Source of the DNA: Aquimarina amphilecti
GTDB lineage: Bacteria > Bacteroidota > Bacteroidia > Flavobacteriales > Flavobacteriaceae
Direction: 5' to 3'
Assembly: GCF_900109375.1 (NCBI RefSeq)
Contig: NZ_FOAB01000003.1
Location: 581,128-645,127, forward strand
DNA: 64,000 nt
Part shown: positions 11,484 through 13,960 of the stretch, in pieces
Layout: every line of letters begins with the position of its first letter
Position numbering within the stretch: the first letter of the stretch is position 1
Notes under the pieces: generated by a model
Told to the model about the DNA's origin: nothing
The model's input: only the letters and a program-made list of their open reading frames with translations
Databases searched by the model: none
Position numbers and translations under genes: made by a program

Positions 11484-13079
11484 ATGAAGAATAACATTGA
11501 AAAAATAGTTGAAACTGTTCTAATCCAAAATAGAATTAGTAATTATGATAAGAAAGATTTAGAACTACAATTACAAATTCATCCAAATTATCCTAGTTTT
11601 CAATCAATTACTGACACACTTGATTATTTCGATATAGATAACATTGCAGTAGAAGTCCCGGTCGATGCTTTAGATCAACTACCAAAAAGTTTTGTTTCTC
11701 TAGTAAAAAAAGAGAATTCTGAAGAAATTGTATCTATCATTAACAAGAATGGAAATGTTGAACTAAAACATACTGATCTCGACACCAAGAAATTCACCTA
11801 TGAAGAGTTCAAAAAAATATGGGTTCCTAAGGTAATAGCTGTTGAGCATAATACGGGAAACAGCGCTATTTTCTCAAAAGAATCTCTAGTGCAAAATATT
11901 CTATTCGGAGGATTATTATTAGGTGCTTTGACAACGCTTGCTTTTAGATCTTTTGATTTATATCAAGTATTATTTTTACTACTATCAATCTCTGGTGTAG
12001 TTTTCAGTCTTTTTGCTGTTAGAGAAAGTTTAGGCATCCAATCAAATACAATGCACCAATTTTGTACTTCTGTTGGAAATTCTAATTGTGGTGATGTAAT
12101 AAACAACAACACCGGTAAATTATTTAAAAACTTCTCTTTAGCAGATGCCAGCATTGCCTTTTTTGGTATTCTTATTATATACCAATTGTTTTATGGATAT
12201 AATAGCACTTTATTATTACCGACGCTTATAGGAATTCCCTTCATAATTTATTCAATTTATTCGCAAGCATTTGTAATTAAAAAATGGTGTGCTATATGTA
12301 TTGCTATAAGTGCCATATCTACAGGTTTGATTGCAGTATCACTATATAGTCTACCTTTTAGTTTTTCCTTAGTATCAATTGCTTCTTTTGTGATGATTTC
12401 TGCACTAGGAACATTGGCTTATATCCACATAAAACAAAATCTTGTAGAAAATAAAGATTATAAAAACGAAAATATAAAACTCAATCATTTTAAAAGAGAC
12501 CGACAAATATTTGAGCACTTATTAAGTTTATCCGAAAAAGTTACAGATAATACGACGATTACTAATGAAATTATTTTAGGTAACCCAAATGCTCAATTCA
12601 AGATTATCAGCCTAACTAATCCAATGTGTGGATATTGTAAAGGTGCTTTTGAAGCATATACAAGAGTATTACGAACAATGAGCGAGCAACTTCAGATTGT
12701 CATACGATTAAAAGTATCGTTAGACGACCTTGACAATCAAGCCACGCAGATCAGTTTACGCTTAATGGAAATATATCACACTGATGGATCAGAAAGATTT
12801 GTAAAAGCATATAGCGAATGGTTTAACGACAGAACATATAGTACTTGGGTAAAAAAATATGGTGCTCCAAAAAACAATATGGAACATGTAGAAAGTTTAA
12901 GAAATCAATCTAAATGGGCAGAAAGCAACAACTTATTTTATACACCTGCCTCTCTTATGAACACATCTATTTATCCTAAAAAATATAGTTACGACGAGTT
13001 TTTTCATTTCACTAGTATGATGATTGAAAACCAACAAGAACCTGATTACAATATGCAAGAAAAGCCTGTTGGAGTTTAA
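11484..13079 (+). CDS. C39-like / VKOR / thioredoxin fusion protein of a peptide locus
   Basis: A 531-residue fusion. Residues 1-~120 resemble the C39-peptidase-like N-terminal domain of such proteins (HPNYPSFQSITDTLDYF) but contain no cysteine, so this part cannot be a cysteine protease. Membrane helices at ~135-315 form a VKOR domain with the loop pair C194/C202 and active-site C269-A-I-C272. The C-terminal thioredoxin/DsbA-like domain (residues ~360-530) has C382-G-Y-C385. Proteins of this type make disulfide bonds: the thioredoxin domain oxidises a client and VKOR passes electrons to quinone. The next genes encode three exported peptides with 6, 4 and 4 cysteines, which are the obvious candidate clients (inference). 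No regulator or transporter is adjacent. Confidence 0.88.
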   Translation: MKNNIEKIVETVLIQNRISNYDKKDLELQLQIHPNYPSFQSITDTLDYFDIDNIAVEVPVDALDQLPKSFVSLVKKENSEEIVSIINKNGNVELKHTDLDTKKFTYEEFKKIWVPKVIAVEHNTGNSAIFSKESLVQNILFGGLLLGALTTLAFRSFDLYQVLFLLLSISGVVFSLFAVRESLGIQSNTMHQFCTSVGNSNCGDVINNNTGKLFKNFSLADASIAFFGILIIYQLFYGYNSTLLLPTLIGIPFIIYSIYSQAFVIKKWCAICIAISAISTGLIAVSLYSLPFSFSLVSIASFVMISALGTLAYIHIKQNLVENKDYKNENIKLNHFKRDRQIFEHLLSLSEKVTDNTTITNEIILGNPNAQFKIISLTNPMCGYCKGAFEAYTRVLRTMSEQLQIVIRLKVSLDDLDNQATQISLRLMEIYHTDGSERFVKAYSEWFNDRTYSTWVKKYGAPKNNMEHVESLRNQSKWAESNNLFYTPASLMNTSIYPKKYSYDEFFHFTSMMIENQQEPDYNMQEKPVGV

Positions 13080-13188
13080 TTGCTCACAGATTATTTTATC
13101 AGAAACGACCTTTTCTTTTATAGAGAAGTTATTTAATAGTAAAAAGACGTATTAAAAGTTCTTTTTCTTCACACACTCACTCAGACAT

Positions 13189-13218
13189 TTCCCCGGATGT
13201 CTTTAAACTTTCGGGGAA
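13189..13218 (+). terminator. Hairpin between the VKOR fusion and the peptide genes (terminator or attenuator)
   Basis: A GC-rich stem TTCCCCG (13189-13195) / CGGGGAA (13212-13218) with a 16-base loop is followed by a T-rich tract (13219-13227). It lies 110 bp after the VKOR stop and 27 bp before peptide 1. It could stop or attenuate transcription into the peptides, or stabilise their transcript. Confidence 0.5.
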
Positions 13219-13245
13219 TATTTTTTAACTCTTAAAACCAAAATT

Positions 13246-13437
13246 ATGTTAAAAAAAATCTCAAGAATTGACAATGTTTCTGAAATTAACAAAGACTCTC
13301 AAAGCAAAATCAATGGAGGATTTGGATTTGGAACCAGTTGTTATGGAAATGACCAACAAAACTGCAGCCCCAGAAGTGGTTGCCAATGGTATGGTTGTTA
13401 TTGCGGACCTAATTATCCGCATATTGCACCTTGTTAG
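13246..13437 (+). CDS. Double-glycine-leader Cys-rich peptide precursor 1
   Basis: A 63-residue precursor. Residues 1-25 form a polar leader ending KINGG, like the GG-type leaders of bacteriocin-like and natural-product precursors of Bacteroidota. Cleavage after GG would give a 38-residue peptide rich in Gly, Pro and aromatic residues. It has six cysteines (C32, C40, C46, C51, C53, C63), enough for three disulfides. A YGN tripeptide follows C32 and recalls the pediocin YGNG box, but the motif is incomplete. GG leaders are normally removed by C39-domain ABC exporters; none is in the window. The ATG is chosen because it sits behind the same pre-start block as in the two following genes. An overlapping frame (13268-13495) is a shadow. 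Confidence 0.85.
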   Translation: MLKKISRIDNVSEINKDSQSKINGGFGFGTSCYGNDQQNCSPRSGCQWYGCYCGPNYPHIAPC

Positions 13438-13469
13438 TAACCGTATTTTAACTCTTAATAACCAGAATT

Positions 13470-13679
13470 ATGTTAAAAAACATTTTAGCACTTGACAGTA
13501 CTCAAAAACTGAGTAAATCACAACAAAAATTAATCTCCGGAGGCTACATTCCAACATTAGAACAATTCTGCTGTGGCCCTCGCTCCCAAGGATGGTGGAT
13601 CCAACAATATCCATTTTTGGGTAACGATCCTTATTACACCTGTTCGGGTGACGTCTGTAATGGTGGTGGAGCTTGGTAA
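13470..13679 (+). CDS. Double-glycine-leader Cys-rich peptide precursor 2
   Basis: A 69-residue precursor with leader residues 1-25 ending KLISGG, clearly related to the leader of peptide 1 (both start MLK and keep a K-x-x-Q spacing before GG). The predicted mature part is 44 residues, with adjacent C34-C35, then C58 and C63, a WW pair and a Gly-rich end NGGGAW. The core shows no alignable similarity to peptide 1. So leaders are conserved while cores vary, as in families of exported bioactive peptides. It starts exactly 32 bp after the peptide 1 stop. Bacteriocin, toxin or signal roles are all possible. Confidence 0.85.
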   Translation: MLKNILALDSTQKLSKSQQKLISGGYIPTLEQFCCGPRSQGWWIQQYPFLGNDPYYTCSGDVCNGGGAW

Positions 13680-13711
13680 AACTTAATATTTAATCTTAAA
13701 ACCTAAAAATT

Positions 13712-13891
13712 ATGAAGCAAATCAAAAAATTAGAAGGAGCTAAAATTCTTTCCAAACAACAACAACAAGATGTTAATGGAGGTATTTATGTATTATCTAA
13801 TCAGAGTAACAGAAGAAGACGCTGTGACCCAGCATTGAGTTGCTGTTATCACAATGGATACACTTGGGTTCAAGGACCACCATGTTTTTAA
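13712..13891 (+). CDS. Double-glycine-leader Cys-rich peptide precursor 3
   Basis: A 59-residue precursor read from ATG 13712 to TAA 13889-13891, easily missed because of its size. The leader (residues 1-24) contains ILSKQQQQDVNGG, matching the leader logic of the two preceding genes. The predicted 35-residue mature peptide starts IYVLSN, has four consecutive arginines (RRRR, 34-37), then C38, the C44-C45 pair and C58 one residue before the end. The Arg run and few acidic residues make it strongly basic, fitting membrane activity (inference). The gene begins 32 bp after peptide 2, the same spacing as between peptides 1 and 2, and a strong terminator follows. Confidence 0.82.
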   Translation: MKQIKKLEGAKILSKQQQQDVNGGIYVLSNQSNRRRRCDPALSCCYHNGYTWVQGPPCF

Positions 13892-13921
13892 AAATTAATT
13901 TAAAGCATTTTTAAATTTAGT

Positions 13922-13960
13922 AAAAGGATTAAATCATTTATTTAATCCTTTTCTCTTTTT
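13922..13960 (+). terminator. Strong intrinsic terminator after the peptide cluster
   Basis: A perfect 13-bp stem (13922-13934 with 13940-13952) and a 5-base loop are followed by a T/C-rich tail. It closes the three-peptide unit 31 bp after the last stop. Confidence 0.85.

What the first reader, a model, noticed from the sequence alone, without database searches (positions are those of the whole stretch)
11484..13960. Disulfide-forming fusion protein next to three GG-leader Cys-rich peptides
A C39-like/VKOR/thioredoxin fusion with C194/C202, C269/C272 and C382/C385 lies directly upstream of three tandem small precursors. Each has a double-glycine leader and an even cysteine count (6, 4, 4). 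Seen directly: leaders, cysteine pairs, order. Known: VKOR plus thioredoxin domains form disulfides, and GG leaders are cleaved during export. Inferred: the locus makes disulfide-stabilised secreted peptides such as bacteriocins or signals. This is the best candidate for an undescribed system here.
Basis: partly seen in the sequence, partly recalled or inferred. Interest (0 to 1): 0.78.

Follow-up and report, generated by a model that had tools for sequence, protein, structure and literature searches.

The report
Leader-guided disulfide enzyme for secreted peptides
This marine bacterium carries a membrane enzyme that probably stitches disulfide bonds into small secreted peptides before they leave the cell; the same genome holds 44 such peptides scattered over many places, many of them behind a shared, previously uncatalogued RNA pseudoknot.

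Summary
The window is from Aquimarina (Flavobacteriaceae). The 531-aa protein is a degenerate C39 domain (no catalytic Cys/His) + VKOR + DsbA-like thioredoxin. In 46 divergent homologues ten residues are invariant, including all six named cysteines. In 299 family genomes, 38 of 40 with the fusion also hold one C39-ABC exporter type, against 22 of 259 without it. GG-leader Cys-rich ORFs are about 60-fold enriched beside the fusion; 81 of 96 non-redundant cores have an even Cys count. The window's own genome encodes 44 such peptides, two fusions and one exporter of that type. Two unexpected results: (1) an extra transmembrane helix and a fully reversed K/R bias (64 of 64 fusions against 0 of 12 canonical VKOR-DsbA controls) predict that the whole redox machinery faces the cytoplasm, where GG leaders exist; this implies leader-guided oxidation before export. 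(2) A covarying H-type pseudoknot with no Rfam match lies 48-70 nt upstream of many of these peptide genes; all 18 of its best matches in the 5.3-Mb genome precede a GG peptide. Catalysis, topology, peptide activity and RNA function are untested at the bench.

The parts
11484..13079 (+). C39-like / VKOR / thioredoxin (DsbA-like) membrane fusion, 531 aa
   Evidence: ORF; Pfam; AF2 model pLDDT 79.5 with fold matches for all three domains; homologues in 40 of 299 family genomes
11484..11858 (+). residues 1-125: degenerate C39-like domain, proposed GG-leader binder, no catalytic Cys or His
   Evidence: fold match to the PCAT1 C39 domain Z 13.1; hhalign to exporter C39 domains E 8.7e-8, the aligned part starting after the catalytic Cys
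11886..11945 (+). residues 135-154: extra transmembrane helix (TM0), absent in canonical VKOR-DsbA fusions
   Evidence: AF2 helix; two hydrophobic segments before the Cys loop in 89 of 91 fusions
11952..12362 (+). residues 157-293: VKOR domain; loop Cys C194/C202 and quinone-site WCxxC C269/C272
   Evidence: Pfam VKOR E 4e-14; Synechococcus VKOR 4nv5 Z 13.5; all four Cys invariant in 46 homologues
12531..13034 (+). residues 350-517: DsbA/ScsC-like thioredoxin domain, CGYC C382/C385, conserved TP before P488
   Evidence: Z 18 to ScsC; C382, C385 and P488 invariant
13183..13218 (+). H-type pseudoknot RNA element: stem 1 AGACAT/ATGTCT, stem 2 (T)TCCCCG/CGGGGA(A), 27 nt before the first peptide start codon
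   Evidence: the only qualifying pseudoknot in the 64-kb window; CM match E 0.0042; covariation in 40 copies
13246..13437 (+). precursor 1: 25-aa GG leader + 38-aa core with 6 Cys
   Evidence: GG-peptide HMM match in own genome E 3e-11
13470..13679 (+). precursor 2: 25-aa GG leader + 44-aa core with 4 Cys (FCCGPRSQGWW... family)
   Evidence: homologues with all 4 Cys kept in L038, L039, L041, L061, L067 and L114 of another genus
13712..13891 (+). precursor 3: 24-aa GG leader + 35-aa core with 4 Cys (CxPALSCCYHNGxTWVQGPPC family)
   Evidence: homologues with all 4 Cys kept in more than ten Aquimarina-type genomes

Best explanation
The fusion is a dedicated, leader-guided disulfide-forming enzyme for GG-leader peptides. 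Its degenerate C39 domain docks the GG leader in the cytoplasm. The cytoplasm-facing thioredoxin domain passes a disulfide to the cysteines of the core and is re-oxidised by the VKOR domain, which hands the electrons to membrane quinone. The oxidised precursor then goes to a C39-ABC exporter with a HlyD adaptor, which cuts after GG and sends the peptide straight out. One or two fusions and one exporter serve tens of peptides encoded around the genome, many of them behind a shared 5' pseudoknot. Shown by computation: domain identities, loss of the C39 catalytic residues, invariant redox cysteines, exporter co-occurrence, dispersed repertoire, even-Cys bias, pseudoknot covariation and its specific position. 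Inferred: cytoplasmic orientation (charge bias plus an even helix number), leader binding, direction of electron flow, order of oxidation before export, any action of the pseudoknot.
For: Exporter ortholog in 38/40 fusion genomes vs 22/259 others, Fisher p 5e-30. Exporter within about 8 kb in 28 of 39 loci outside Aquimarina. GG-Cys ORFs 61-fold enriched near the fusion; even Cys in 81/96, p 4e-12. Own genome: 44 GG-Cys peptides, 40 even; the only two VKOR genes are the two fusions; no DsbB. Ten invariant residues in 46 fusions include all six Cys. The C39-like domain is homologous to that of the exporters but lacks Cys/His and matches leader-bound PCAT1. Topology: extra helix in 89/91; K+R on the catalytic side minus the other side is +5.9 (64/64 positive) against -7.0 (0/12 positive) in canonical VKOR-DsbA; same result inside and outside Aquimarina. 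A soluble stand-alone C39-like protein near an exporter (L151). The C39 peptidase domain binds leaders in the cytosol (PMC6959990); an engineered inverted VKOR is used for cytoplasmic disulfide formation in E. coli (PMC5471842 citing Hatahet and Ruddock 2013). Pseudoknot: 18/18 best genomic matches precede a GG peptide.
Against: No transcript, peptide or disulfide was measured. Topology rests on hydropathy and the positive-inside rule; a simple scan sees 5 rather than 6 helices in 25 of 91 fusions, and the AF2 domain arrangement is uncertain (pTM 0.43). The cytoplasm is reducing, so a disulfide made there must survive until export. 15 of 96 cores have an odd Cys count, and GG peptides without Cys occur beside some fusions (L050, L054-L056). 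16 of 39 Aquimarina loci have no adjacent peptide. Residue -7 of these leaders is mostly Gln, not the Leu of the PCAT consensus.
Confidence: 0.6

Rival explanations
1. Same substrates, ordinary side: the VKOR and thioredoxin domains face the periplasm as in canonical VKOR-DsbA, and peptides are oxidised during or after export; the C39-like domain only helps recruit precursors or holds the exporter.
For: All characterised bacterial VKOR-DsbA systems known to me act outside the cytoplasm; disulfides are hard to keep in a reducing cytoplasm (established knowledge). The VKOR fold matches Synechococcus VKOR.
Against: K/R distribution is the reverse of canonical controls, with no overlap. With six helices the C39-like domain would also have to be periplasmic, without a signal peptide and away from the leaders. 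The ABC + HlyD exporter of these loci belongs to a type that bypasses the periplasm.
Confidence: 0.2
2. The fusion keeps the peptide cysteines reduced or reshuffles them (reductase/isomerase) so that unfolded precursors stay fit for export; oxidation happens outside.
For: The C39-like domain of HlyB recruits unfolded substrate (PMC6363468); the thioredoxin fold also resembles DsbC/DsbG.
Against: VKOR normally drives oxidation by passing electrons to quinone; both VKOR Cys pairs are invariant. The thioredoxin motifs CGYC/CGHC resemble PDI/DsbA-type oxidases.
Confidence: 0.12
3. The fusion is the general disulfide enzyme of the cell and its neighbourhood with GG peptides is incidental.
For: It is the only VKOR type in this genome and no DsbB was found; 16 of 39 Aquimarina loci have no adjacent peptide.
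Against: Only 40 of 299 family genomes hold it; very strong link with one exporter type and with GG peptides; fused C39-like domain.
Confidence: 0.05

Closest known systems
Bacteroidetocin loci (Coyne et al. 2019, PMC6671954)
   Same: GG-leader peptides with Cys, a C39-ABC exporter and a thiol oxidoreductase whose deletion weakens the toxin; no immunity gene found
   Different: There: one peptide, a separate thiol oxidoreductase and a 5-TM protein of unknown function, 15-aa leaders. Here: one C39-VKOR-Trx fusion, 24-25-aa leaders, a HlyD adaptor, tens of dispersed diverse peptides, a pseudoknot. Whether their 5-TM protein is a VKOR relative was not tested.
Canonical bacterial VKOR-DsbA/Trx fusions (Synechococcus VKOR, PDB 3kp9/4nv5)
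   Same: VKOR fold, loop Cys pair, CxxC, C-terminal thioredoxin-like domain with CxxC
   Different: Extra N-terminal transmembrane helix and C39-like domain; opposite charge bias, hence predicted cytoplasmic catalytic side; linked to one class of peptides
C39 peptidase domains of PCAT exporters and the C39-like domain of HlyB
   Same: Same fold; homologous to the C39 domain of the partner exporters
   Different: Catalytic Cys/His missing, as the Cys is in HlyB, but carried by a redox enzyme instead of an ABC transporter
Pediocin-type disulfide accessory proteins (PedC-like), from my own knowledge
   Same: A dedicated thiol-disulfide protein encoded with GG-leader peptides
   Different: Those are stand-alone thioredoxin-like proteins without VKOR or C39-like domain
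NCBIfam NF047798 leader_Chryseo 'bacteriocin-like protein' and NF047792 CCPGW
   Same: Similar GG leaders in Flavobacteriales; 6 and 2 of 24 peptides match weakly (best E 0.03 and 0.006)
   Different: No member reached a clearly significant score; no enzyme or mechanism is attached to those models
Small H-type pseudoknot riboswitches such as preQ1-I
   Same: About 35-nt H-type pseudoknot with an A-rich linker in a 5' UTR
   Different: No Rfam 15 family matched the element up to E 1; different conserved bases; found only before GG peptides here

Membership tests
VKOR family | Pfam VKOR match above cut-off and VKOR fold | tested here: met
   53.2 bits vs cut-off 27.5; Z 13.5-13.7 to human and Synechococcus VKOR
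VKOR family | loop Cys pair and CxxC at the quinone site | tested here: met
   C194, C202, C269 and C272 invariant in 46 homologues
Canonical VKOR-DsbA (periplasmic) | topology with the catalytic side in the periplasm, K/R on the opposite side | tested here: not met
   charge bias reversed in 64/64 vs 0/12 controls; extra helix in 89/91; sequence-based prediction only
C39 peptidase | C39 fold | tested here: met
   Z 13.1 over 124 residues; hhalign E 8.7e-8
C39 peptidase | catalytic Cys and His | tested here: not met
   alignment to the exporters starts after their catalytic Cys15 and no His is kept at His88; only 12 of 91 fusions have any Cys in residues 1-30
Class II (GG-leader) bacteriocin-like precursors | GG leader with the conserved hydrophobic pattern | tested here: met
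   L-12 79/96, I-4 81/96, G-2 95/96, G-1 86/96; but Q rather than L at -7 in 78/96
Class II (GG-leader) bacteriocin-like precursors | antibacterial activity | not testable with these tools
   needs peptide and killing assay
Bacteroidetocins (class IIf) | four-gene locus: 5-TM protein, peptide, thiol oxidoreductase, C39-ABC | tested here: not met
   fusion + peptides in the window, exporter unlinked; no separate 5-TM protein gene seen
Bacteroidetocins (class IIf) | sequence similarity of the peptide | not tested
preQ1-I or other Rfam riboswitch | covariance-model match | tested here: not met
   no match for the element among 4227 Rfam 15 families up to E 1 in ten loci holding copies; a pseudoknotted family without sequence likeness could be missed

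The most novel reading that the evidence does not exclude
A naturally inverted VKOR: Bacteroidota make disulfides in the cytoplasm on leader-bearing peptides, using a membrane enzyme guided by a dead C39 protease domain. One such system serves a dispersed library of about 45 peptides per genome, part of which is held together as a regulon by a new covarying 5' pseudoknot.
Probability: 0.5. Interest if true: 0.87.

Novelty: new variant of a known kind. Interest (0 to 1): 0.75.

Why it matters
If right, this is a leader-guided disulfide enzyme working on the cytoplasmic side before export, an arrangement I know only from engineered strains. It would explain how type I-exported peptides, which skip the periplasm, get their disulfides. 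It opens a large family of structured peptides: 44 in this genome, with relatives across Bacteroidota. The pseudoknot gives a handle to find such genes even when they are not annotated and, possibly, a new regulatory RNA class. All steps can be tested in culturable Aquimarina or in laboratory E. coli.

Tried and rejected
Split C39-like and VKOR-Trx genes in G536 (L149) and G479 (L154): on inspection both breaks lie near the first transmembrane helices and look like frameshifts, so they are not used as evidence. Pfam Toxin_30/Ptu match of precursor 1: E 0.03, below cut-off, not used. The other C39-ABC in the genome (C5:592664) is only 31% identical to the partner type and was not linked to fusions. 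Sigma-70-like promoter scan around the locus: fewer sites than in shuffles, uninformative. Pseudoknot as intrinsic terminator: the window copy is followed by T6, but most other copies are not. No paper on this fusion was found in the searches; only open-access papers are held.

Full report
Setting. The closest named relatives of the fusion are from Aquimarina (A. latercula, 92% identity), so the window is from Aquimarina, Flavobacteriaceae. The fusion lies between an endonuclease gene and a gene for an OppC-like permease; the window holds no exporter.

Observation. Pfam gives a firm VKOR match and weak C39 and thioredoxin matches. An AlphaFold2 model from 32 homologues (pLDDT 79.5, pTM 0.43) compared with the PDB settles the domains: 1-125 = C39 domain of PCAT1 (Z 13.1, 124 residues), 157-293 = VKOR (Z 13.5-13.7), 350-517 = ScsC/DsbA (Z 18). 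Profile comparison finds the N-domain homologous to the C39 domain of the partner exporters (E 8.7e-8) without their catalytic Cys and His.

The enzyme family. 40 of 299 family genomes hold the fusion. An HMM finds full-length members across several families, orders and classes of the phylum. Ten residues are invariant in 46 divergent members: C194, C202, Q261, C269, C272, C382, C385, W478, P488, P498. The thioredoxin motif is CGYC, CGHC or CGFC in most.

Link to peptides and exporter. GG-leader ORFs with at least two Cys occur at 1.79 per kb of non-coding sequence downstream of the fusion, against 0.029 per strand-kb elsewhere. Of 39 fusion loci outside Aquimarina, 34 have such a peptide within 3 kb downstream, and the other five have one upstream, between two fusions or a little further off. 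In Aquimarina 23 of 39 do. Among 96 non-redundant cores 81 have an even Cys count (p 4e-12). An exporter of one type (C39-ABC, with HlyD) is found in 38 of 40 fusion genomes and 22 of 259 others (Fisher p 5e-30) and sits within about 8 kb of the fusion in 28 of 39 non-Aquimarina loci. The genomes are related, so these p-values overstate independence, but the hits span 36 genera.

The own genome. It holds a second fusion (28% identical) with four more GG-Cys peptides, one exporter of the partner type at C10:392540-394741, no other VKOR and no DsbB. A peptide HMM finds GG-leader Cys-rich peptides on many contigs; 44 distinct ones were read out, 40 with an even Cys count (the HMM itself favours cores with Cys). 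Thus two enzymes and one exporter appear to serve a dispersed library.

Topology. Canonical VKOR-DsbA proteins from other genomes of the phylum (17 ORFs, 12 with five clear helices) have K/R in the TM2-3 and TM4-5 loops and almost none beside the CxxC or after TM5. The fusions show the opposite: loop TM2-3 0.16 vs 3.67 K/R, TM4-5 0.39 vs 4.00, CxxC loop 2.08 vs 0.08, after TM5 4.78 vs 0.58; the summed bias is positive in 64 of 64 fusions and in 0 of 12 controls, inside and outside Aquimarina alike. 89 of 91 fusions have an additional hydrophobic helix before the VKOR core. Both facts agree: with six helices the C39-like domain, both VKOR cysteine pairs and the thioredoxin domain lie on one side, and the charges say that side is the cytoplasm. 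GG leaders are bound by C39 domains in the cytosol (PMC6959990), and ABC-HlyD-TolC export bypasses the periplasm (established knowledge), so a cytoplasmic enzyme is also the one that could meet the precursors. An inverted VKOR has been engineered for cytoplasmic disulfide formation (cited in PMC5471842).

The pseudoknot. Reading the sequence before the 44 peptides showed a repeated element: stem 1 AGACAC/GTGTCT, a loop whose 3' half pairs with a strand after an A-rich linker (stem 2). In the window it is at 13183-13218 and is the only such site in 64 kb. In a set chosen only by GAC...GTC and a GG ORF downstream, stem 2 is complete in 47 of 61, against a mean of 13.2 and a maximum of 26 when strands are shuffled. 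In 40 copies all six stem-2 pairs show changes on both sides, and no shuffle reaches the covariation score (these copies were picked as pairing, so one search is the fairer test). A covariance model using only stem 1 and sequence finds 18 matches with E<1 in the 5.3-Mb genome; every one precedes a GG-leader peptide. In the family, 26 of 28 genomes with the element hold the fusion (p 4e-25; the model was trained on copies from such genomes, but many matches lie far from any fusion). No Rfam family matched. Only the first of the three window peptides has a copy, as if it headed an operon. Its function is unknown; I think a 5' UTR regulatory RNA that joins the dispersed genes into a regulon is most likely (inference).

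Mechanism and limits. Best model: leader docking by the dead C39 domain, thiol oxidation by the thioredoxin domain, re-oxidation by VKOR and quinone, then cleavage and export. Not shown: topology by experiment, binding, redox direction, order of events, secretion, and what the peptides do. No immunity gene was recognised beside the peptides, which is also the case for bacteroidetocins, so toxins and signals are both open.

Known or new. GG-leader Cys peptides with a C39 exporter and a thiol oxidoreductase are known from bacteroidetocins (PMC6671954). New here, as far as the open-access papers searched go: the C39-like-VKOR-Trx fusion as a family, its predicted inverted orientation, the large dispersed repertoire and the pseudoknot.

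Noticed in passing
window 13183-13218 and L231-L248, L257-L275: Covarying H-type pseudoknot 48-70 nt upstream of GG-peptide start codons, no Rfam 15 match; may be a regulatory RNA in its own right.
   Followed up: partly
L050, L054, L055, L056 (0.5-1.3 kb downstream of the fusion): One to four tandem GG-leader peptides without any cysteine (core ...DPLTNEPVVDLNISQEALISG..), nearly identical to each other, beside the fusion in four Aquimarina-type genomes.
   Followed up: no
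L151:7372-7812: Stand-alone soluble C39-like protein (146 aa, no transmembrane helix) near a partner-type C39-ABC exporter, its HlyD protein and a DUF6734-like gene.
   Followed up: partly
L100:10904-12202, L096 and L097 beside the fusion, L151:3-995: DUF6734 protein (Pfam E 2e-100 in L100) next to the exporter in the own genome and similar genes next to fusions or exporters in others; perhaps another enzyme of the pathway.
   Followed up: no
L101:8874-11600: TPR-CHAT protease-domain protein directly upstream of the second fusion in the own genome.
   Followed up: no
L072 and L075, 0.1-0.5 kb downstream of the fusion, opposite strand: Two GG peptides with a different leader type (MKKKKLSIKKF..KGG) next to the fusion, a possible second leader class; a similar leader follows the pseudoknot at G000:C6:57830.
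   Followed up: no
L220:7904-8001: Flavo-1 RNA (Rfam RF01705, E 4e-9) in the own genome.
   Followed up: no
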